Below are positions 3,070-20,156 of a stretch of DNA of 20,156 bases, piece after piece. The position numbers and the translations under genes are program-made. Source of the stretch: a virus. Location of the stretch: positions 1 to 20,156 of IMG/VR virus record IMGVR_UViG_3300043409_000419; one strand, given 5' to 3'. The first letter of the stretch is position 1. The number at the start of each line of letters is the position of its first letter. Under the pieces are notes generated by a model that saw only the letters and a list, made by a program, of their open reading frames with translations, ran no database searches and was not told the DNA's origin.

Positions 3070-5322
3070 TCATACTTTTTTATACCTTGCAACAACCTTC
3101 TTGGATTTAGAATGAACCTTTTCTTCTTTGGAAACATGGCCTTCACTACATAGAGCCGCCAATGCCGTTTCAATGTCTGCCCGCTTGTATCCCCGGCACC
3201 TGTTGATAATAACCCCGGACGTTTCGCCATCATCGCCACTAACAAGCCCTAAAATCCGAGCCTTCAAAGCTAAAGCTGGTGCATCCTTCGCGCGATCATT
3301 AGACACAACGAGAGCAATCTTTTCCTCAATATCATTACGTACCAGAGCAAATGCCCATCGCACATGTTCAGCCGTGCGCAACCCCTCGCCAACTGACAAG
3401 ATCAAGCTAACCTTGGCAACCAACTCATAAGCCCCCAAAACCAGAGCCTCCAAGCCGCTGCGCCCCTTTTGGTTTTCGGCGCTGTCTTCGATCCAATCCA
3501 GTACCGCATCAAGCATCTTTTCAGCGTCCGCAGTTGAAGGGACTTCAATCCTATCGCCTATAAATTGCACCCTAGCCCGTGAATTAACCTCAAATTCACC
3601 GCCACTATACAGTTGCATAAAAGTCATTTTCAGAGGATCTGGCATAGGTCGCGCCTTAAATCCACGTTTAGCCCTTGGAACAGTTTCACGTTCATAAAAA
3701 AGCAATGATCGACCGATAAATCCGTTAGTGGCGCTGCGATGGTCAACCATGCTGTCGAATGTTTCCGGGATGGTGTAACCATGCAATGACAAGAAAGGCT
3801 TTTCTAACCCGCTATCAATCGACACTATCGCCCGGTCAATTTCGCCTATCCTCACATCATCTTCGGCAACGTCACCTTTAAGCAACAATGCCTTTTCCTT
3901 CAAAAGCATTTCCCGAACTTCTTCCTTGCGGTCGCCCTGCAATAGCATGTACTTGTTAGCCTTGGAATATGCAGACATAAGCATACCAATAACGCCGTCA
4001 AGATATACAGCGCCGCCTTTATCCTGAGCGTTCTTAATCTTGCGCAACAATTCTCCGATCTCATCGACAACGTAAAGCGCAGACTGGTGACGCACAAGGT
4101 TAGAAACAATCTCTTTTTCAGACTTGATAGAGCCATGAGTTGCAGCAATAATCCCCGCAGCCCGGTGAATGTCCGCAACGGCCTGTTGCACTGCTTCTTT
4201 GCCAGTCCGTGACCCTGCAACGCAGAACGTGAATAGGTTGCAAGTAGCGCCCTCTCTAGCGTCGGTATAGCGTAATCCTGCAAGGTTGCCCATGGCTGTC
4301 AACGCCGCCGCGACAGCAAGCTTCCTACGCGGTCTACGGCATTGATCATTGATCCACTCTGTCACAACCCCGACAAGCCCCGGGGGGCAGTTTAGATCAA
4401 CGCCACTTATGTCAAATGGCAACCCATCGTGCGGTGTATCAGTCACAGGCGCATCCGGTTCGTCAAACACAACACTTCTAATCCATCCGCCTTGCTCTGC
4501 GTGATAGATCAACGTGCCAATTGTGACGGGGTTTGCAGACTTGCCGAAAGAATGCCATTTAGCGGCCATGCCATCACCGTCATGCTTAGCTGATGTAGAT
4601 GACCATTGTTCCCATAGGTGCAATCCGTCGCCACCTGTCGCGCTATGAAGGGCCATCCCGACCCTAATCCAGTCCTCATAGTCTAGTTCGGCGTTTTTGT
4701 AGTGTTTAAGCATATCCGCCAAGTCATCATGGCTAACGTCCATCACCCCACCGTTGTATTCCGCCCTATGCCTTTCCGGCTTGCGTAGCAATGCCACAAG
4801 CGCGTCAGGCGCTGGACCTATGCTGTAGGCGTCACCATCAAGCACCTCGTACCTAGCGCCGCTGGCATGAAGTGAACCCGGCCCAACAACGTAACCGCTA
4901 CTCTTGAAGTCGATACCTTTGAACTCTGGCAAGTGCGTCACCATCGCAACACCTTCCGGTGCAGTGAAATACAAATGCCGGGAACCATTGCCGCTACCAG
5001 TCGCAACAATCAGCCCACAGTTTGCAAGATCAGGCACAGCCTCGGCCAACTTGGCCCAGCTATCAACACCACCATTGCGCGCATCAATATCCACAACGAT
5101 AAGACCACGGCACAAAACGCCGTACCCGGTTGATAGCTGGCCCGTCATTTTCATGACTTCTATCTGATCGTCTGACCATTCAGGACTATGCTGCCATGAG
5201 GATGAATAGGGGTGTTTACCCGGAACCTTGCATTCAGGATCACCGCAGCCACAACTCTTACACTTGATAGGGTATAGGCCGAAAATGCGAAACCCGGCTT
5301 CCCGAAAATCTTGATACTGCAA
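3070..5322 (-). CDS. Bifunctional primase-polymerase with PriCT and DUF3987 helicase-like domain
   Basis: Probable replication initiator that makes primers and moves along DNA. The N-terminal prim-pol domain (about 1-180) has a Cys/His cluster (C21, C24, C26, C31, H37), the metal-binding pair D78-x-D80 in VVDIDAR, H116 in RHLYF, and GIDFKSSGYVVGPGS (136-150), the hallmark of the bifunctional DNA primase/polymerase family. A PriCT-like module (about 200-275) contains DYEDWIRVGMALH. From about 315 to 700 the sequence matches DUF3987, with a P-loop-like AGSRTGKE (369-376) and a VVDE Walker B-like motif (418-421). The start is TTG: AGAGGGG lies six bases upstream and translation begins directly with the conserved FREAGFRIFG segment. 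At 750 residues it is full length. It has its own predicted promoter just upstream. Confidence 0.9.
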   Translation of the reverse strand: MQYQDFREAGFRIFGLYPIKCKSCGCGDPECKVPGKHPYSSSWQHSPEWSDDQIEVMKMTGQLSTGYGVLCRGLIVVDIDARNGGVDSWAKLAEAVPDLANCGLIVATGSGNGSRHLYFTAPEGVAMVTHLPEFKGIDFKSSGYVVGPGSLHASGARYEVLDGDAYSIGPAPDALVALLRKPERHRAEYNGGVMDVSHDDLADMLKHYKNAELDYEDWIRVGMALHSATGGDGLHLWEQWSSTSAKHDGDGMAAKWHSFGKSANPVTIGTLIYHAEQGGWIRSVVFDEPDAPVTDTPHDGLPFDISGVDLNCPPGLVGVVTEWINDQCRRPRRKLAVAAALTAMGNLAGLRYTDAREGATCNLFTFCVAGSRTGKEAVQQAVADIHRAAGIIAATHGSIKSEKEIVSNLVRHQSALYVVDEIGELLRKIKNAQDKGGAVYLDGVIGMLMSAYSKANKYMLLQGDRKEEVREMLLKEKALLLKGDVAEDDVRIGEIDRAIVSIDSGLEKPFLSLHGYTIPETFDSMVDHRSATNGFIGRSLLFYERETVPRAKRGFKARPMPDPLKMTFMQLYSGGEFEVNSRARVQFIGDRIEVPSTADAEKMLDAVLDWIEDSAENQKGRSGLEALVLGAYELVAKVSLILSVGEGLRTAEHVRWAFALVRNDIEEKIALVVSNDRAKDAPALALKARILGLVSGDDGETSGVIINRCRGYKRADIETALAALCSEGHVSKEEKVHSKSKKVVARYKKV

Positions 5323-10803: not shown

Positions 10804-12213
10804 ATGATCACTGACGGTTTCCAAAACGTAATGGCAGGATTACACCCCGGACGCGATAAAGCGATGATGGCTGGCCATGTCAAGTCACTATGGACCACTG
10901 CACAGTTTGAGGCGGTCTATTCCGATAGTCCAGCCGCTAAAGCCGCCATTGATCAAATCCCGGACGATAGCTTTCGCAAGTGGCGCGTATGGCAGGGCGA
11001 TGATCCGCAAGTAAACATGCTGGAATCTGTCGAGAAGAAACTAAAGATCAAACAAACCCTAAACTGGGTCGATAAGATGAGCCGCCTCTATGGCGAGTAT
11101 TATGCTTACATCGACGTTGGTCAAAAGCCAGAGAAGCCGCTAGACCCCGCAACTGTTGGCAAGGATGGACTGCGGTTTGTCATTCCTATGTCACCTTTGC
11201 AGCTAACCGTGGGCGACTGGGAAAACGACCCTCTATCTGCTGAATACGGTCGGCCTAAGTACTACACCGTATCTGGCAGCGATCAGGGCATGGTGCAAAT
11301 CCATCCTAGCCGGGTGATCCGCATGTTCGGCACTGAAACGCCTTCTCAGGGTTTCGGTTTTCAGCGTGGCGAGAGTGTGCTGCAATATCTTATGACGTCG
11401 GTCATGCAATACGATAGCGTCATGGCTAACGTGTCGTCATTGATCTATGAAGCCAAAGTTGATGTTATTCAATATCCCGGATTGTCGCAGGTTCTAGACG
11501 GTGGCGCGCAAGAGGCCGCGTTCCTTAAAGCGCAAAACCTAGCGATGATGATGAAAGGCAACAACGGCGTGTTGTTGCTAGAGGGCGCAACGTCAAAGGA
11601 TGGCGTGGGCGCGGTATACTCGCAGAAGCAAATGTCATTCGCCACATTGCCAGATCTTATCGACCGTTTCCAAGCCCAGCTCGCTGGGGCTGCAAACTCC
11701 AACCGTTCGCGTATGTTCGGGGTATCGTCGGGCGGTCTGGGCAGCAACGGCACGTTGGAGCTATCAACGTATTATGACTTCATTAATTCGCGGCAAACAA
11801 ACTATCTTGAACCTGCGCTAACCATCCTTGATGAGTGCATTATTCGTTCGGCGCTAGGGTCACGGCCTGATGATCTTTGGTATGAGTGGTCTAGCTTGTG
11901 GCAGATCAGCGATAAGGAACGTGCGGACATTGGCGCGCAACTCGCTAACGCGGCTAAGACGCTGGCTGATGCGGGTATCTTGCCTGCCGAAGTATTGAGT
12001 GAGCCTGTAACTCTGGCATTGGTAAACGCGGGCGTATTCCCCGGACTTGATAAATCGCTCGGTGATTTTATCAGGGGAGGCGGCGAGATTGATCCTGAGC
12101 CTACAATCGAAGAACTGCCGCCATCCGCACCTAAGCCCGCTGTTAAGGATGAGTTGCCAGAGATTGACCCGACATTACAGCTATTGACAGATTACCTAAG
12201 CGGGGCAAAATGA
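10804..12213 (+). CDS. Phage portal protein (DUF1073 type)
   Basis: Forms the dodecameric ring at the capsid vertex through which DNA is packaged and ejected. The 469 residues match the DUF1073 portal group. Visible landmarks are a YSDSPAAKAAIDQIPDDSFRKW-type N-terminal segment, SRLYGEYYAYIDV, SRVIRMFGTETP, the helical LQYLMTSVMQYDSV, and the C-terminal NSNRSRMFGVSSGGLGSNGT with ELSTYYDFINSRQTNYLEPAL, typical of the portal clip and stem. The ATG at 10804 is preferred over an in-frame TTG at 10780 because the latter lies within the predicted -10 box and AAAGGG precedes the ATG. The last residues overlap the fibre gene (ATGA). The C-terminal tail is Pro/Glu rich and probably flexible. Confidence 0.9.
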   Translation: MITDGFQNVMAGLHPGRDKAMMAGHVKSLWTTAQFEAVYSDSPAAKAAIDQIPDDSFRKWRVWQGDDPQVNMLESVEKKLKIKQTLNWVDKMSRLYGEYYAYIDVGQKPEKPLDPATVGKDGLRFVIPMSPLQLTVGDWENDPLSAEYGRPKYYTVSGSDQGMVQIHPSRVIRMFGTETPSQGFGFQRGESVLQYLMTSVMQYDSVMANVSSLIYEAKVDVIQYPGLSQVLDGGAQEAAFLKAQNLAMMMKGNNGVLLLEGATSKDGVGAVYSQKQMSFATLPDLIDRFQAQLAGAANSNRSRMFGVSSGGLGSNGTLELSTYYDFINSRQTNYLEPALTILDECIIRSALGSRPDDLWYEWSSLWQISDKERADIGAQLANAAKTLADAGILPAEVLSEPVTLALVNAGVFPGLDKSLGDFIRGGGEIDPEPTIEELPPSAPKPAVKDELPEIDPTLQLLTDYLSGAK

Positions 12214-14249
12214 ATACAGTTGAACTCGCTGCCATTATCGCCGTTGCCAAGCGCGAAGTCGAGTTGCGCGTTACTGAGAACGGCGCGGTAAAGGGCGATC
12301 AGGGTCTACCAGGCAAAGATAGCGTAGTCCCCGGCCCTAAAGGTGAACGGGGAGAACGGGGTGGTGATGGCAAGGATAGCTTTGTTCCGGGGCCTAAAGG
12401 CGATACGGGGGCCAAGGGTGACAAAGGCGATACGGGGCCGCAAGGCGAGACTGGACCTAAAGGTAATGACGGCAAGGACGGGACGGATGGTAACAACGGC
12501 GTTTCGATCCGTGACGTTTATGTTGATCCTGATGATGGTGACTTGTACGTTGAACTAACTAACTCGCGACTAATCAATGCAGGCCACGTTAAGGGTGAGG
12601 ACGGCAAGCCGGGCAAGGATGGCCGCAACGGGTTTACAGGCGGCGGTGGTAGTAGCACGGGCGGCGCGTCACTGCCCGCTGGTGGATCGACTGGGCAGGT
12701 ATTGGCTAAGGCTAGCAATGCCGATCAAGACGTGTCATGGCAAACTGTATCGGGCAGCGGCGTTGCGGATGGTGACAAGGGCGATATTACTGTAAGCGGC
12801 GGTGGTACTGTCTGGACCATTGATCCGGGCGCTGTAACGCTTGCCGATATGGCAAACATCGCCACTGCCACGCTGATAGGTCGCACCACGGCTGGCACGG
12901 GCGTTCCTGAAGCATTGACGCCCACGCAGGGTCGCACGGTACTTGGCTTGGGTACGCTTGCCACGCAGTCGGGCACGTTCTCTGGCACGTCAAGCGGCAC
13001 TAACACTGGCGACGAAACGGCAGCGGGTATTCTTGCCAAGCTGATCACTGTTGACGGTCCGGGTTCCGGGCTTGACGCTGACTTGCTTGACGGATTGTCT
13101 AGTGCGGCGTTTGCTACTGCGGCGCAAGGCACGTTGGCATCGACTGCGGTTCAGCCTGCTGCCTTGGCGGGATATCAGCCGTTAGATAGTGATCTGACAA
13201 CGATTGCGGGATTGACTGCCACAACTGACAACTTCATCCAGTCCAAGGCGGGTGCATGGGCATCTAGGACGGTTGCGCAGGTTAAGACTGATCTAGGCTT
13301 GACGGGTACTAACAGCGGCGATCAGACTTCGATTGTCGGGATTACTGGGACCAAGGCGCAATTCGATACGGCGGTTACTGATGGTAACTTTATGTATGTC
13401 GGTGATGCGCCAACTGCTCATACTCACTTGCTTGCGGCTGGCGCTACCGATGTGACCATGACTGCGGCTAACCTTAACACGCTTGATGATGGTGTGGACA
13501 CAACTCTGCACTTCCACGCGGCTGACAGGGATAGGTCTAACCATACAGGCACACAATCTGCGGCGACGATCACCGGGCTTGCTGCTATTGCTACATCAGG
13601 ATCGGCATCAGACCTATCGGCGGGTACGTTACCTGCTGCGCGGTTTGACGATACGGCACATGGTTCACGCGCAGGCGGTACATTACACGCTGTAGCAGTC
13701 GCTGCGGGTGCGGCTGGATTTATGTCGGGCGCGGACAAGACGAAGCTGGACGGCATCGCGGCGGGTGCGCAGGTCAACGTCGGCACTGACATCACCTACA
13801 ACGCGGGCACTCGGTTGCTATCGTCATCGACTGGTAACGACGATACCTTGCCGCTTGTCACGACCGCCAACGCTGGCCTAGCTCCTGCATCGGGCGGGGG
13901 AACGACTAACTTCCTACGCGCAGACGGGACTTGGGCGGCACCTGCTGGGGGTGGCGGGGGAGGCGCAACGGGGGGGACTGCGACTATCGACTTCGGTGCC
14001 GCACCGGGAACTAACATCGCATCCTTGGTTGTAACTGGACAGGCGGCAATTGGCGCTTCGTCCAATATTAAGGTATGGTTTCAGGGAGGTTCAACGGCTG
14101 ATTTTAACGAATATGAGCATCTATTTATTTTGCCCGGTTCGGTTTCATTAGTGGCGGGAACAATCGTTAACGGCGTCGGCTTTACTATCTACGCAACAAC
14201 GCAACTTAGAATTAGAGGCAACGTTGTTTGCCGTTGGGAATGGAGTTAA
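12210..14249 (+). CDS. Collagen-like phage tail fibre protein
   Basis: Predicted trimeric fibre. An N-terminal helix (1-24) precedes interrupted Gly-X-Y collagen repeats (about 29-97), including two copies of a GKDS-V/F-VPGPKG block, and a short second collagen stretch (about 124-146). The remainder is made of repeats common in phage fibres: STGQVLAKASNADQDVSW, GTNTGDET and GTNSGDQT, ADLLDGLSSAAFATAAQ, and SNHTGTQSAATITGL. Two HxH motifs (404-406 and 434-436) resemble the metal-binding sites of T4-like fibre needles. A glycine run (580-588) links to a beta-rich C-terminal module ending RIRGNVVCRWEWS. The start is translationally coupled to the portal stop. Fibre identity is strong; which virion part it occupies (tail tip, side fibre or capsid) is unknown. 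Confidence 0.88.
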   Translation: MNTVELAAIIAVAKREVELRVTENGAVKGDQGLPGKDSVVPGPKGERGERGGDGKDSFVPGPKGDTGAKGDKGDTGPQGETGPKGNDGKDGTDGNNGVSIRDVYVDPDDGDLYVELTNSRLINAGHVKGEDGKPGKDGRNGFTGGGGSSTGGASLPAGGSTGQVLAKASNADQDVSWQTVSGSGVADGDKGDITVSGGGTVWTIDPGAVTLADMANIATATLIGRTTAGTGVPEALTPTQGRTVLGLGTLATQSGTFSGTSSGTNTGDETAAGILAKLITVDGPGSGLDADLLDGLSSAAFATAAQGTLASTAVQPAALAGYQPLDSDLTTIAGLTATTDNFIQSKAGAWASRTVAQVKTDLGLTGTNSGDQTSIVGITGTKAQFDTAVTDGNFMYVGDAPTAHTHLLAAGATDVTMTAANLNTLDDGVDTTLHFHAADRDRSNHTGTQSAATITGLAAIATSGSASDLSAGTLPAARFDDTAHGSRAGGTLHAVAVAAGAAGFMSGADKTKLDGIAAGAQVNVGTDITYNAGTRLLSSSTGNDDTLPLVTTANAGLAPASGGGTTNFLRADGTWAAPAGGGGGGATGGTATIDFGAAPGTNIASLVVTGQAAIGASSNIKVWFQGGSTADFNEYEHLFILPGSVSLVAGTIVNGVGFTIYATTQLRIRGNVVCRWEWS

Positions 14250-14252
14250 TCA

Positions 14253-15725
14253 ATGCCGGGTTTTAGAATTGAGGGCAATACTAGCGGAAACGTTGCCGAG
14301 GTTAATGACGCTAACCAAATCAAAGTCGTGCCCGAAACGGACGCATCTACCAACCCCGGAAACGTGGGTGGCGTTCGTGCGTTTGGTGAAAACGATCAGG
14401 GCTTGATTACTGGCATTACCTCGCTGGCATCGCCTGAGATTGACGTTGATTATAGGATGCGCGTCGCGCAAGACACCATGCTTGACGAAGAGGTGTTCTC
14501 TTACACCGCGCAAAACACGGGCAAGCACAACCTTAGCTCCACGACTATGGCCGCATCGTTTACTGCAGGTCAGTATACGTCCAACTCGGCGTCTATTACC
14601 ACGATCGCAACCGGAACGCAGCTTGCGACTTACGCTTACTTTCCGAACATCGGCGCGAATACTTTGGCGGCTGATTATGAATTGGCGTTTTCGGCGCAAC
14701 CTACGACTAACTCGTTTATTGAGTTTGGCTTAGGTCTGCCGGGTGGCGCTACTGCTGCACCGACTGACGGCGTATTTTTCCGGCTTAACTCGGCGGGCTT
14801 GCAGGGTATTGCATCGAACAACGGCACCGAAACAAGCACGGGTGTTTTCCCACTAGCGGCTGGTTCGGGCGTTTGGGCTTATATCAATAACAAGCGTTAT
14901 CAGTTCATCGTTTACATGGGCGCAGTTGAAGCTGAATTTTGGGTGAACGACGGCACGGGCGCGGTTAAACTAGGTCAAATCCCGCTTCCTGCTGGACAAG
15001 CTAGAATGTGCATGGCGCAAGGGATGCAGGTTTTTCACAAGCACCGCATCGTAGGCGGCGCGGCTGGTGGTGTGTTGCAATCGTTCCTTGGCGCGTATTC
15101 GGTAAGGCTTGGCGGCGCTAATATTAGCACTCTGGCAAGTACGCTAGGCAATCGGATGTATGGCTCTTATCAGGGCTTGTCGGGCGGCACGATGGGCAGC
15201 TTGGCTAACTATGCCAACTCTGCCAACCCGACTGCGGCTGTACCAACAAACACGACTGCGGCGCTTGGCGTCGGCCTTGGCGGGCAATTCTGGGAAACGG
15301 ACACGCTCGCAGTTACGACTGACGGTATTATCCAATCCTACCAAGTCCCGCAAGGCACGGCTAACGTGCAAGGGCGGCGTCTTGTTATTCGCGGCGTGAA
15401 AATTCAGACCTACGTACAGACCGCGCTAACGGGCGGCGGTTATGTCGCGCAATGGTCGCTGGCATTCGGTCACACAGCGGTTTCTCTAGCAACGGCGGAA
15501 GGCGTCACATCCAAGGCCCCGCGACGTATTCCACTCGGCATTCATGGCGTACCATCGGCTGCGGCGGTAAACTCCACGCTTGGTGATATCATAGTCGACT
15601 TCGGGGATGCGCCTGTATTCGTAAACCCCGGCGAGTTTGTGCAAGTCGTCAAAAAGAAAGTCGGAACCGCGCCAACTGCGGGCACCTTAGCTTATACGAT
15701 AACTTATCTGTACGGGTGGGAATAA
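14253..15725 (+). CDS. Putative virion structural protein (GNTSGNVAEV family)
   Basis: A 490-residue protein beginning MPGFRIEGNTSGNVAEVNDA followed by ETDASTNPGNVGGVRAFGEN. I recognise this opening from structural-region proteins of many environmental phages that lack an assigned function. Residues about 75-290 (LDEEVFSYTAQNTGKHNLSS ... FGLGLP ... DGVFFRLNSAGLQGIASNNG ... RYQFIVYMGAVEAEFWVNDG) read as a jelly-roll or concanavalin-like beta sandwich. The C-terminal part (about 310-490) is a second beta-rich domain. There is no membrane segment or enzyme motif. GGAG lies seven bases before the ATG, three bases after the fibre stop. Position among fibre genes suggests a virion surface or tail component; the exact role is not known. 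Confidence 0.78.
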   Translation: MPGFRIEGNTSGNVAEVNDANQIKVVPETDASTNPGNVGGVRAFGENDQGLITGITSLASPEIDVDYRMRVAQDTMLDEEVFSYTAQNTGKHNLSSTTMAASFTAGQYTSNSASITTIATGTQLATYAYFPNIGANTLAADYELAFSAQPTTNSFIEFGLGLPGGATAAPTDGVFFRLNSAGLQGIASNNGTETSTGVFPLAAGSGVWAYINNKRYQFIVYMGAVEAEFWVNDGTGAVKLGQIPLPAGQARMCMAQGMQVFHKHRIVGGAAGGVLQSFLGAYSVRLGGANISTLASTLGNRMYGSYQGLSGGTMGSLANYANSANPTAAVPTNTTAALGVGLGGQFWETDTLAVTTDGIIQSYQVPQGTANVQGRRLVIRGVKIQTYVQTALTGGGYVAQWSLAFGHTAVSLATAEGVTSKAPRRIPLGIHGVPSAAAVNSTLGDIIVDFGDAPVFVNPGEFVQVVKKKVGTAPTAGTLAYTITYLYGWE

Positions 15726-15728
15726 CAC

Positions 15729-15980
15729 ATGGCTAAAGTTACGGTCACATCGGCGGGAACGCAAATTCTAAACGGAGCGCAATCGACTAACACGGTTGTG
15801 GTGGTAGGTTCAACTCCTGTACGTTTTGGTACAGGCACAATTGGCGCTAGGGTGTTCGATGATCTTGCCCCTTTAGGCGCGGGCCAATATATTGTCTTTC
15901 CGCCTTCAATCATCGTCACGGTCTACGCTCTGCCAACTAAGACACAAGCGTTTATCTACACTGAGGGCTTCGGCGCATGA
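15729..15980 (+). CDS. Small beta-rich protein, possibly virion-associated
   Basis: An 83-residue protein, MAKVTVTSAGTQILNGAQST onward, ending IYTEGFGA. Almost all predicted strand (VTVTSAGTQIL, NTVVVVGSTPVRFG, IIVTVYALPT), consistent with a small beta sandwich. It starts three bases after the previous gene, has only a weak GGGA site, and its stop overlaps the start of the giant downstream gene (ATGA, 15977-15980). Such small beta proteins between fibre genes can be decoration or fibre-attachment proteins; that role is inference only. Confidence 0.72.
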   Translation: MAKVTVTSAGTQILNGAQSTNTVVVVGSTPVRFGTGTIGARVFDDLAPLGAGQYIVFPPSIIVTVYALPTKTQAFIYTEGFGA

Positions 15981-18900
15981 TCATTATCGGGCTAACTGAA
16001 AACAATCGTATCGGGCAGCCCGGCGGCGTTCTTGCTAGGTATAAAAGGGGCGGCGCGCTTACTGCCCCTGTTTTTACGTCTAACCCTTCAATCACTGGTT
16101 CTGATGCAGTTGGCAGCGTTTTAACGGTTAACTTCTCGGCAACTGGAAACCCTATTCCAACCGCAACTTATCAATGGACAAATGCGGGCGTTGATATTGG
16201 TGGCGCTACATCCACGACTTACACTTCGACAACTGCGGGTCAGACACTTCGTTGCCGTGTAACGCTAAACAACGGCGTTGGTGGCCCTGTTGTAATGACG
16301 TCCAACTTAATCACGGTTACGTCCGCAGATTACATCATTACGACCGACGCTGAATGGACCGCGCTTATGGCAAACAGCGCCGCAACCCTTTCTGGCAAGA
16401 CTGCCGAGATTAGGGGAGCTCTTGGCGATACAACAATCAGCAGCAAGGCTTTCACAACCCCGTTTGTGGTGCGTGGGGGCGTTGGCGGTTCGGTTCGCCG
16501 GATGAACTTCAACGGCACAATCACCAACCTAACATTCAGGGGCTTGCTTCACCAAATGACTGGGTGGCCTAAAACGCATGACAGCACGGTCATGTTCAAC
16601 ACCTGCAACCTGTCCGGGATGCGGTGGGAAAGCTGCACATTCCGCCACGGATACGGCGCGGGCCTGGTTAATTTGGACCCAACGGCAAATTACCCTGAAT
16701 ATATCAGAACGGACAACGTTCAAACGGCCACGACAACTTCGGCAAGATATGCGCTTACATTCCAAGACCCAGCGGCAACATCGGCGTGGATTGAGTTTTT
16801 CAACCGTGGCTCGGCCAGTGTCTATTACAAAATAGGCGATAATACCGTTGTTGCGACAACTTCCGACACATTGGCTACTACCGGCACAGGATCAACTAGA
16901 TCATCGTCATTTAACCCGCAAACGGCAACCCACATTGCCATTCTTGCGGCGTCTGGGTCGCAGCAAATTAACGCGCGAACAGAGATTGGAATTGCGCACT
17001 ACCTTGCCGATGCGTTCAACTCTAGCGGAGCGGCTAGCGCAACTGACGTTTACTTCCAAGATTGTGAAGTTAGCGACATGGCTAACGGGTTCAAAAAAAT
17101 TACCCCTCCAACAAGTGGCGCGGGTGTTTTAATGGATTGTCGCACCCGCCGCGTTTATATGGACCAATCGGCTTTCGTTGTAGATCCCGGCGCGACACTT
17201 TATGTGCTACGGAATAGCTTTGGTATGCCTTTCGCGCGTTCCGGCATAGCAGAAGCGAATAACGGTGATGCGCGCGACCCCCACGGCGATATTGCGCAGC
17301 ACTTCGGGCCGGGTATTGGTACGCTTGGCCCGCTATACTACGCTGGAAACCGCCATTATATGGAAAACAAGCGATCAGGCGTTGATAGTCAAGGCTTGTT
17401 TGTAAACAGCAACAATTTCACGCCTTCTTATAATCGCGTGTTCTCGATTAGTGACATTTTCTTAGGCGGTGCGGCAAACGGAATTACAGTCGGGGATACT
17501 ACTTACCCTGCCGAGGCAACAATGATTTATGGCGCAACGATTGTTGATCCTAGGGATATTACGACACAAACCCGACTAAGGTTTGAAGATGGGAAAAACA
17601 ATCAAATCTATATAGGTAAGTCTCTCGCCGTTGGGATAGTTGGAAATCCATTACTGGATCAGTCCATAGACATAACTGGAATATCTACGCCATCTTCTGT
17701 TTTTTCTAATCTAAGCGCAGCGCAAACAGCAACTACAAGGGCATCACTTGAAGCCGCTCTGACAACTGTTGGCCCAGCGGCCGGTATTGGTGCTGTAGCA
17801 ACCTCAAACGCAATCGACTGGACTACAACCGATCATACGCAGGTTATCTTGTGGGCAAACGTTCCTAGCGGCGCTGAATGGCTAGACCTTCCGCTTCAGT
17901 CAATTAACGCCATGATCACACTGCCACTGCGCCGCATCTTGAACCGCCGCGCTTCGCAAACTGTTGTGCCTGGAACTGGCGTCGAATGGCGTTCAGTCGC
18001 AACTGATGGCACGACGCAAATTCAGGCGTGGACTACAACTTCTGGAACTATTCAGCCTGACCAATACATCCAAATCCGTAAGATGTCCTCGGCTTCTGGT
18101 TTGACGGCTGTTGATTTCGCTGTGACCATTAACGGGTTTACGCAAATATGCTCTGTTACAACACAAGCTGCGGCCCCAGCAGTCTTCCATATTCAAAGCG
18201 GAACTGGCCCGTATTTCCGCGACCCCGCTAATAGCACTCCAGCCAGCACGACGCGCATGGAGTTTCGGGCTAACATCTACCCAACGTCTCTGCCGGGATC
18301 ATCGGTAAGGCTATTTACCCAAGAAAGCAACTCATGCGATCTTGAACTTACCACGACTGGCGGGTTCCGTCTTTACGTTAGAGATGGCGCGGCTAACTCT
18401 GTTTTGTCTGGAGTAGGTGCATCTACCGGATTTGCGCTAAACCAATGGCAGACAATAGTCGTTGATGTAAACCATTCGGCTGGTACGGCTTCAATCACTA
18501 ACAACGGAACTGTAGCAGGTTCTTGGACTTGGACCCCAACAGCGTCACCGACATTCCCGACAATTCGTGAAATTTCGTTTTGCGGAACAACTGCGGGTGC
18601 AAGTCTAGTTCCATCAGGATGGCAAATTGAATATGCTGAATGTTATTTCACCACAGGCGGAACTCGTACTTTGCGCAAAAACGTTTCAGGCAATGCGGCA
18701 ACGGTAAACGCTGACCCGTGGCGTCAAGGCGCTGGGGACGCTACTTCCCCATCTCTACCTGTAGGCCTGATCTTCACAACGGGCAACAGCCACATGGACG
18801 GCAGGGATAGCGCATCTGGTGAAACATTCGCTGCTAATGTCTACGAATACAATCAATCTGGGGTTATTGCTCAGCCAGTTGGTGCAATCCTTGACACTGG

Positions 18901-20156
18901 CGACGTATCTGGAAACCATCAGGCTGGCGATATTAGCCCAATGGTTTCTTTCGCCAATGCTCTTTCTGCGGCGCGACCAGACCTTAACCGGATTGTGTTT
19001 GTCGGTAATGCGCAGGGCTCTACCGGGTTTGTCGATGGCACATGGTCGGGAAATCCTGCAAATCACCCTAATAGACTTACAACTGCGGTTTCCCGTTGGA
19101 ATGCTGCAAAAACTGCGCTAGAGGGGCAAGGGTTCACAGTGCAACCTCTTGGGGCGGTTCATATTAGCTCTAATCCAGACGCATCGACTGTTGTGGCAAC
19201 GGACGCAAACGTCACTGCAAACGCACTGGTATACCAAAACAGCCAATCGGAATATGTGGACTACCTGCGTGCAAACCTAAACGGCGTTAGCCCAACATTC
19301 CCTGTCATTGTTTCCAACGGGATGCTTTTCGTTGACGCGAACGCTGGAACAAATACCCAAGCGGGCGTGTCTGCTGGTCAGGGCGTTCCTTTTGTCCGCC
19401 CATATACTTGGTTTATGGACCCAATTAATGATTGGAATGACGGCGAAACGGCTAATCTTCCAGTGGCTGACTTTGACGGACTTCACGCCAATAGAGTTGG
19501 GGAAGCCACTAAAGGGCGATTGACCTACGCTGCACTTGCCCGCGCAAATAATAACACCCAAGAAAGCGCCCCATTCTCTTCATTGTCATCGTGGGCAAAC
19601 ATGGAAAGCCTATATGACTTCCGTTCTGGAACGGGCAAGGATATTGTTGGCGCATATAATCTGACGCAAGGGAGCGGTTCACAGCCGGGGCTTATTCGGT
19701 GGGCAAGTGCTTTCGGAACTCGTGTCTTTGACAGACCATCTGGTGCTAACAGGGTATTTTTCCGCAACAGATACCTTCCGGCCCAATACACAATATCGAC
19801 GCGGGTACGGTTTGACAGCTTGTCGGCGGCGCAAGGACTGTTCATGAACACGACTGGGTCGGGATCGGTGCAACAGCGTTTCTTCATTAACGCGACCAAC
19901 TTTGTCGCGGGCAACGCTGGACAAACAGACATAACCACAGCGCACGGCATGTCGATCAACACGACATATAACCTTGCAGTGACTTATGACGGCACCAACA
20001 TTCGAGCCTATAAAGACGGGGTTTTGCTAGGTTCCGCAGTTGCTTCTGTAACGCCTGATCAAACTCGCGGCCTTTATATTGGTTGCCAAAACGACGTATT
20101 CGCGGGGCCGTTTCTTGGCGATATGCAATGGGCTGCAATTTACAATACAGCCTTGT
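15977..20156 (+). CDS. Giant multidomain tail/receptor-binding protein with SGNH esterase and two LamG-like domains (partial)
   Basis: An uninterrupted frame of at least 1393 codons that leaves the window without a stop. Domains read in order: a short N-terminal segment; an Ig-like domain (about 33-115, with YQWTNAGVDIG and LRCRVTLNN); a long beta-rich region (about 116-580) with repeated short strands and Asn/Gly turns resembling a beta-helix; a linker; a first concanavalin/LamG-like domain (about 735-890, FRANIYPTSLPGSSVRLFTQ); an SGNH/SASA-like esterase domain (about 930-1180) with nucleophile block GNSHM (Ser938) and the catalytic Asp-x-x-His block DGLH (Asp1167, His1170); and a second LamG domain (about 1215 to the edge, ISTRVRFDSL, YNLAVTYDGTNIRAYKDGVL). 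This fits a tailspike that binds and deacetylates surface polysaccharide. Start is coupled to the previous stop. The substrate is unknown. Confidence 0.85.
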   Translation, partial: MIIIGLTENNRIGQPGGVLARYKRGGALTAPVFTSNPSITGSDAVGSVLTVNFSATGNPIPTATYQWTNAGVDIGGATSTTYTSTTAGQTLRCRVTLNNGVGGPVVMTSNLITVTSADYIITTDAEWTALMANSAATLSGKTAEIRGALGDTTISSKAFTTPFVVRGGVGGSVRRMNFNGTITNLTFRGLLHQMTGWPKTHDSTVMFNTCNLSGMRWESCTFRHGYGAGLVNLDPTANYPEYIRTDNVQTATTTSARYALTFQDPAATSAWIEFFNRGSASVYYKIGDNTVVATTSDTLATTGTGSTRSSSFNPQTATHIAILAASGSQQINARTEIGIAHYLADAFNSSGAASATDVYFQDCEVSDMANGFKKITPPTSGAGVLMDCRTRRVYMDQSAFVVDPGATLYVLRNSFGMPFARSGIAEANNGDARDPHGDIAQHFGPGIGTLGPLYYAGNRHYMENKRSGVDSQGLFVNSNNFTPSYNRVFSISDIFLGGAANGITVGDTTYPAEATMIYGATIVDPRDITTQTRLRFEDGKNNQIYIGKSLAVGIVGNPLLDQSIDITGISTPSSVFSNLSAAQTATTRASLEAALTTVGPAAGIGAVATSNAIDWTTTDHTQVILWANVPSGAEWLDLPLQSINAMITLPLRRILNRRASQTVVPGTGVEWRSVATDGTTQIQAWTTTSGTIQPDQYIQIRKMSSASGLTAVDFAVTINGFTQICSVTTQAAAPAVFHIQSGTGPYFRDPANSTPASTTRMEFRANIYPTSLPGSSVRLFTQESNSCDLELTTTGGFRLYVRDGAANSVLSGVGASTGFALNQWQTIVVDVNHSAGTASITNNGTVAGSWTWTPTASPTFPTIREISFCGTTAGASLVPSGWQIEYAECYFTTGGTRTLRKNVSGNAATVNADPWRQGAGDATSPSLPVGLIFTTGNSHMDGRDSASGETFAANVYEYNQSGVIAQPVGAILDTGDVSGNHQAGDISPMVSFANALSAARPDLNRIVFVGNAQGSTGFVDGTWSGNPANHPNRLTTAVSRWNAAKTALEGQGFTVQPLGAVHISSNPDASTVVATDANVTANALVYQNSQSEYVDYLRANLNGVSPTFPVIVSNGMLFVDANAGTNTQAGVSAGQGVPFVRPYTWFMDPINDWNDGETANLPVADFDGLHANRVGEATKGRLTYAALARANNNTQESAPFSSLSSWANMESLYDFRSGTGKDIVGAYNLTQGSGSQPGLIRWASAFGTRVFDRPSGANRVFFRNRYLPAQYTISTRVRFDSLSAAQGLFMNTTGSGSVQQRFFINATNFVAGNAGQTDITTAHGMSINTTYNLAVTYDGTNIRAYKDGVLLGSAVASVTPDQTRGLYIGCQNDVFAGPFLGDMQWAAIYNTAL

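What the first reader, a model, noticed from the sequence alone, without database searches (positions are those of the whole stretch)
15977..20156. Unterminated giant receptor-binding protein combining Ig-like, beta-rich, LamG, SGNH esterase and LamG modules
Manual translation shows one open frame of at least 1393 codons with no stop. An esterase domain flanked on both sides by lectin-like LamG domains on one phage polypeptide suggests a tailspike that recognises and removes acyl groups from a host glycan. This arrangement is not one I recognise as a standard phage tailspike.
Basis: partly seen in the sequence, partly recalled or inferred. Interest (0 to 1): 0.7.

Follow-up and report, generated by a model that had tools for sequence, protein, structure and literature searches.

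The report
Phage spike chimera with esterase module
The end of this phage contig encodes a very long receptor-binding spike made by joining two mobile parts, and the second part (an esterase-like plus a lectin-like domain) is also found as a free secreted protein inside a soil bacterium's slime-polysaccharide gene cluster, which suggests that the phage edits the host's sugar coat, although no activity has been shown.

Summary
The open frame is real: 1,393 codons from ATG at 15977, no stop, cut only by the contig end. It is a tail receptor-binding protein (RBP) in a slot (83-aa gene – RBP – 118-aa gene – head-maturation protease) where sister phages, with near-identical portals, carry unrelated RBPs of 1,093 and 1,444 aa.

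The protein is a chimera. Residues 172 to ~921 (probable beta-helix plus first LamG) match an RBP of an unrelated phage at 41% (E 8e-160), which continues with cadherin/Ig repeats instead. Residues 929-1393 (SGNH plus second LamG) match, at 38% (E 4e-86), a whole secreted protein of Allorhizobium borbori lying in a polysaccharide cluster with three acyltransferases. So the LamG-esterase-LamG "sandwich" is a seam between two cassettes.

The esterase-like domain is a relative of SASA esterases. It keeps Ser938/Asp1167/His1170 but lacks both SASA oxyanion-hole signatures (GQSN, HQGE). Most likely it de-acylates host exopolysaccharide; activity is inferred. Esterase tailspikes are known; this is a new variant. 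Structure predictions were too weak to use.

The parts
15729..15980 (+). 83-aa gene directly upstream; its stop overlaps the ATG of the spike gene (ATGA)
   Evidence: 74-93% identical in sister phages
15977..20156 (+). receptor-binding spike gene, 1393 codons, cut by the contig end
15977..16051 (+). lineage anchor, residues 1-25; DNA similarity to sister phage L004 stops at codon 25
   Evidence: blastn 13577-16051 against L004, 79.7%
16064..16321 (+). Ig-like domain, residues 30-115
   Evidence: PHROG 3995 tail E 2.9e-5; Ig_3 E 0.02; 31-41% to L004 Ig-like segments
16325..17896 (+). probable right-handed beta-helix, residues 117-640; conserved GDARDPHGD at 430-438 (17264-17290)
   Evidence: 41% identity to L037; AF2 confident (pLDDT 74-91) only for about the first 50 residues; no significant fold match
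17765..18181 (+). conserved stretch, residues 597-735, between beta-helix and LamG1
   Evidence: 38-60% identity per 40 residues to L037
18182..18739 (+). LamG1, residues 736-921; same cassette as the beta-helix
   Evidence: Laminin_G_3 E 2.3e-5 on 18137-18727; in L037 too
18740..18760 (+). seam between the two cassettes, residues 922-928
   Evidence: L037 similarity ends here and A. borbori similarity begins at residue 929
18761..19564 (+). SGNH esterase-like domain, residues 929-1196
   Evidence: 38% to A. borbori L023; profile to SASA proteins
18788..18790 (+). Ser938, candidate nucleophile, in T-G-N-S-H (block I); Asn937 stands where SASA has Gln
19160..19180 (+). block III, residues 1062-1068 (HISSNPD; HLSSRPD in A. 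borbori), in place of the HQGE motif of SASA
19475..19486 (+). Asp1167-Gly-Leu-His1170, candidate acid and base (block V DxxH)
19583..20155 (+). LamG2, residues 1203-1393; same cassette as the esterase; ends at the contig end
   Evidence: Laminin_G_3 E 5.5e-13; A. borbori

Best explanation
It is the receptor-binding tailspike of a tailed phage. A short anchor and an Ig-like domain hold it on the virion; these are the only parts it shares, weakly, with sister-phage RBPs. A probable beta-helix with a LamG domain (one mobile cassette) binds, and may cut, a surface polysaccharide. An SGNH esterase-like domain with a second LamG domain (another mobile cassette, shared with a secreted protein of an Allorhizobium polysaccharide cluster) removes O-acyl groups from the same or a linked polysaccharide, with LamG2 holding the chain. 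Shown here: the frame, the slot, the exchange of RBPs in the slot, the two cassettes and their seam, the conserved Ser/Asp/His, and the gene cluster around the bacterial homologue. Inferred: virion location, beta-helix fold, catalysis, substrate, and that the two cassettes act together.
For: Slot and neighbours: portal, collagen-like, 490-aa and 83-aa genes upstream; 118-aa gene and head-maturation protease downstream in a sister. Sister RBPs in the same slot are unrelated beyond the anchor and Ig part, though portals are 91-95% and the 490-aa and 83-aa proteins 74-93% identical. Cassette 1 occurs in an unrelated phage with a different terminase family. Cassette 2 occurs as a free protein with a signal-like N-terminus in a cluster with a polysaccharide export protein (Poly_export/SLBB), Wzz/kinase, Wzy_C, three glycosyltransferases and three Acyl_transf_3 proteins. 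SASA relationship by profile, including R7L gp40, a phage virion protein that also puts a SASA domain before a LamG-like C-terminus (its C-terminus judged by eye). TGNSH, QGSTGFV and DGxHAxR blocks are identical at 38% overall identity. Phage SGNH tail proteins de-acetylate host polysaccharide in tested cases: Aristophanes gp41 (PMC8471582), Possum gp66 (PMC9569702), and G7C gp63.1 as cited in PMC13123978.
Against: No activity data. Both oxyanion-hole signatures of SASA are missing, and their substitution is reported to abolish activity in that family (PMC9487903). Neither AlphaFold model is usable overall. No fold match of the beta-helix is significant. The host is unknown. Only one bacterial homologue of cassette 2 was found, so its link to a polysaccharide cluster rests on a single genome.
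Confidence: 0.6

Rival explanations
1. The SGNH-LamG cassette is not an esterase on the spike but a binding module, or works as an O-acyltransferase: the altered oxyanion hole has lost hydrolysis, and the bacterial copy helps to acylate the polysaccharide, as AlgJ, AlgX and PatB do.
For: GQSN and HQGE replaced by GNSH and [IL]SS[NR] in both known copies; three acyltransferases beside the bacterial copy; SGNH folds serve as acetyltransferases in other polysaccharide clusters (PMC9487903; PMC4148444 by title and abstract).
Against: Ser, DxxH and the block II Gly stretch are identical in the two copies at 38% overall identity, as expected of a working hydrolase site. A phage outside the cell has no acyl donor at hand (inference). 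Phage SGNH tail proteins tested so far in the papers read are esterases.
Confidence: 0.2
2. The LamG-esterase-LamG stretch is one functional and evolutionary unit: two lectin arms feeding one esterase.
For: Both LamG domains are there and both match Laminin_G_3.
Against: L037 has LamG1 without the esterase or LamG2; A. borbori has the esterase and LamG2 without LamG1; the seam lies at residues 922-928.
Confidence: 0.1
3. The contig is a metagenome assembly chimera joined at about 18750, so the two cassettes never lie in one gene.
For: The seam coincides with the end of similarity to one relative and the start of similarity to another; no second copy of the joined gene was found.
Against: A false join would have to keep the frame and fall exactly between domains. 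G+C content is even across the seam, 0.51 on both sides. The sister phage L005 has an SGNH-like motif set in the same slot (by eye).
Confidence: 0.05

Closest known systems
Allorhizobium borbori secreted SGNH-LamG protein (L023:4914-6428, NZ_JACIDU010000008.1)
   Same: same two domains in the same order, 38% identical over 465 residues, same candidate catalytic motifs and same loss of the SASA oxyanion motifs
   Different: free secreted protein of about 505 aa in a chromosomal polysaccharide cluster; no anchor, beta-helix or LamG1
RBP of IMG/VR phage contig 3300038701_001570 (L037:6836-10234)
   Same: beta-helix and LamG1 cassette, 41% identical over about 750 residues
   Different: ends in cadherin/Ig-like repeats, no esterase, unrelated phage, no Ig anchor
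Dinoroseobacter phage R7L gp40 (NC_070859.1)
   Same: virion protein with a SASA domain followed by a LamG-like C-terminus (by eye); GSTGFVDGxWS block shared
   Different: canonical GQSN and QGE motifs, F5/8-type N-terminal domain, no beta-helix seen; weak overall similarity
Phage SGNH tail deacetylases: Aristophanes gp41 (PMC8471582), Possum gp66 (PMC9569702), G7C gp63.1
   Same: SGNH domain on a tail protein; removes O-acetyl from host polysaccharide
   Different: activity proven there, not here; no LamG pair and no beta-helix reported in the passages read
SASA-type tailspikes of Acinetobacter phages (PMC11126041, PMC11058221)
   Same: tailspike esterase parts homologous to bacterial sialate O-acetylesterases
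   Different: surveys list SGNH and pectin-lyase (beta-helix) tail proteins as separate classes; here both seem to lie on one chain

Membership tests
SGNH hydrolase superfamily | block I nucleophile Ser | tested here: met
   TGNSH, Ser938, identical in A. borbori and aligned with GQSN of R7L and L028
SGNH hydrolase superfamily | block V Asp-x-x-His | tested here: met
   D1167-G-L-H1170; DGTH in A. borbori
SGNH hydrolase superfamily | block II Gly | tested here: met
   QGSTGFV 1013-1019 identical in A. borbori; GEGSTGFV in R7L
SGNH hydrolase superfamily | block III Asn | tested here: not met
   Asn1066 in the window but Arg in A. borbori; true SASA members also lack this Asn (PMC9487903), so this does not exclude the superfamily
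SGNH hydrolase superfamily | alpha/beta/alpha SGNH fold | tested here: inconclusive
   AF2 pLDDT 36.6; fold search uninformative for the SGNH part
SASA / CE6 esterases (PF03629) | profile score above the curated cut-off | tested here: not met
   13.3 bits against 24.8
SASA / CE6 esterases (PF03629) | Gln before the catalytic Ser (GQSN) | tested here: not met
   GNSH in both copies
SASA / CE6 esterases (PF03629) | block III (H)QGE motif | tested here: not met
   ISSN and LSSR at that place
SASA / CE6 esterases (PF03629) | homology to SASA members | tested here: met
   two-sequence profile hits R7L gp40 (6e-10) and L028 (1.4e-6), both Pfam SASA; a sister group, not filed as a member
Laminin_G_3 (PF13385) | profile score above the cut-off | tested here: met
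   50.7 bits for the whole protein, LamG2 49.8 alone; LamG1 alone 25.0, just under 27.6
beta-helix tailspike | right-handed parallel beta-helix | tested here: inconclusive
   no Pfam match; N-terminal cap pLDDT 74-91; best fold matches are beta-helix lyases but at E 1.4 or more
beta-helix tailspike | trimer on the virion | not testable with these tools
   needs purified protein or virions

The most novel reading that the evidence does not exclude
A two-enzyme tailspike: a beta-helix polysaccharide-cutting cassette and an esterase-lectin cassette on one chain, the latter founding a group of SGNH esterases with a rebuilt oxyanion hole (Asn next to the Ser, no QGE) that passes between phage spikes and the bacterial gene clusters making the very polysaccharide it edits.
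Probability: 0.3. Interest if true: 0.62.

Novelty: new variant of a known kind. Interest (0 to 1): 0.42.

Why it matters
Which bacteria a phage can infect is set largely by such spikes. This one gives a clear case of a spike assembled from two separable cassettes, and its esterase cassette points to a named bacterium and a named polysaccharide cluster, so the substrate can be tested. The missing SASA oxyanion motifs make the domain a good test of how far that active site can change and still work.

Tried and rejected
Whole-protein and domain tblastn in phages and plasmids: none or very weak. Viral-contig scans with the whole protein, the esterase part and its A. borbori pair: none. Searches of 1,588 genomes and records in all, mostly genomes of the order, family, class and phylum of A. 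borbori: no other full-length copy of cassette 2, mostly LamG-only hits plus one SASA protein. PDB sequence searches: nothing useful. AlphaFold of cassette 2 and of the beta-helix with two rows each: mean pLDDT 37 and 38. Foldseek for cassette 2 returned lectin-like jelly-roll domains of many unrelated proteins from this poor model; read as the common LamG fold only, not as kinship or function. Pairwise and profile matches of the window's SGNH part with L005 were not significant, so L005 is not claimed as a relative. The 490-aa neighbour was used to collect more RBP slots; in remote phages the next gene is a different (MSLLLAL...) protein.

Full report
Observation. The frame 15977-20156 is open over 1,393 codons; the window is the whole IMG/VR record, so the missing stop is a contig end. 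The chance of such a run is about 2e-28 at this composition. Residue 1393 lies 17 residues before the end of the A. borbori homologue and at position 145 of 151 of the LamG profile, so little may be missing, though extra domains beyond the edge cannot be excluded.

Surroundings. Upstream lie terminase, portal, a collagen-like tail protein, a 490-aa and an 83-aa gene; replication genes are on the other strand. A portal search found seven sister contigs with 81-96% identical portals. Two reach the slot: L004 (RBP of 1,093 aa, beta-helix region by PF13229, E 5e-4 on the piece but under the curated cut-off) and L005 (1,444 aa). Both are followed by a gene of 117-118 aa and then one of 329-336 aa, identified in L004 as the head-maturation protease. 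The proteins just upstream are 67-93% identical, yet the RBPs share only the first residues and an Ig-like domain at 31-41%; DNA similarity to L004 stops at codon 25 and to L005 at the start codon. The slot therefore exchanges RBPs. L005 carries SGNH-like motifs by eye (DGQSELS, GDQLHP), but no alignment with the window is significant.

Two cassettes. A scan with the beta-helix part found L037, an RBP of 1,132 aa in a phage with a different terminase family. It matches residues 172 to ~921 at 41% (E 8e-160), then turns into cadherin/Ig repeats. A genome scan found L023 in Allorhizobium borbori: 38% over residues 929-1393 (E 4e-86), a whole protein of about 505 aa with a signal-like N-terminus. 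The seam is at residues 922-928. So LamG1 belongs with the beta-helix and LamG2 with the esterase.

The bacterial copy lies among a polysaccharide export protein, a Wzz/kinase, a Wzy_C protein, three glycosyltransferases, a phosphomannomutase-type enzyme, an AMP-binding enzyme and three Acyl_transf_3 proteins. That is a polysaccharide cluster with acylation genes. Searches among 1,588 genomes and records in all gave no second full-length copy. Whether phage or bacterium was the donor cannot be told; the bacterial gene is at 62% G+C and the phage part at 51%, and they are 38% identical, so any transfer is not recent.

The esterase site. A profile of the window and A. borbori SGNH parts hits R7L gp40 (6e-10) and L028 (1.4e-6), both Pfam SASA (3e-12 and 5e-30), against 1.5 for the best of 900 shuffles. 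The review PMC9487903 defines SASA by a Gln beside the catalytic Ser and an (H)QGE block III, which together form an inverted oxyanion hole; their substitution abolishes activity. Window and A. borbori have GNSH and [IL]SS[NR] at these places but keep Ser938, the block II Gly stretch and Asp1167-x-x-His1170. This is a sister group of SASA with a changed oxyanion hole. Activity is plausible, because the triad is kept at 38% overall identity, but not shown.

Structure. AlphaFold with two rows gave mean pLDDT 36.6 (cassette 2) and 38.3 (beta-helix), with good confidence only for about the first 50 residues of the latter, a helix and first strands as in a beta-helix cap. Fold searches were not significant or not specific. 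The beta-helix is therefore a reading from sequence pattern, not a result.

Literature. Phage SGNH tail proteins that de-acetylate host polysaccharide are established: Aristophanes gp41 (PMC8471582), Possum gp66 (PMC9569702), and two Klebsiella prophage tail fibres active on p-nitrophenyl acetate (PMC13123978). Acinetobacter surveys list SASA tailspikes homologous to bacterial sialate O-acetylesterases (PMC11126041, PMC11058221). These papers treat beta-helix and SGNH tail proteins as alternative classes in the passages read. Searches for a tailspike with both gave none recognisable from titles and abstracts, but the library is open-access only and not every hit was read.

Verdict. Observation confirmed; interpretation partly supported; a new variant of a known kind. 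The most useful result is the two-cassette anatomy and the tie of the esterase cassette to a bacterial polysaccharide cluster.

Noticed in passing
L005:4123-6432: The terminase large-subunit gene of the sister phage L005 carries an in-frame insert of about 318 codons that matches the Pfam intein splicing domain (PF14890, E 2e-7, under the curated cut-off) and begins with Cys and ends His-Asn before Cys; the window's own terminase (413 aa) has no insert.
   Followed up: partly
window 12210-14249: Collagen-like tail protein (679 aa), 67-69% identical in sisters but varying in length (572-679 aa), directly after the portal.
   Followed up: no
window 14253-15725: 490-aa protein with no Pfam family and no tblastn match in the phage collection, yet found in 14 IMG/VR loci at 37-92% identity; in remote phages it is followed by a different protein beginning MSLLLAL.
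   Followed up: partly
window 16685-17026 (residues 237-350): Stretch inside the probable beta-helix that is 55-72% identical to L037 while its flanks are 20-45%; may be a separately exchanged insert.
   Followed up: partly
window 17264-17290 (residues 430-438): GDARDPHGD, identical in L037; a candidate active-site block of the beta-helix.
   Followed up: no
L005:11992-16326: Sister RBP of 1,444 aa with SGNH-like motifs (DGQSELS at 780, GDQLHP at 1022) and a LamG-like C-terminus by eye; no Pfam match.
   Followed up: partly
L004:2805-5453 versus window 3070-5322: Sister phages carry primases that match different PHROG families (phrog_35358 and phrog_3022) despite about 90% identical terminase and portal DNA.
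   Followed up: no
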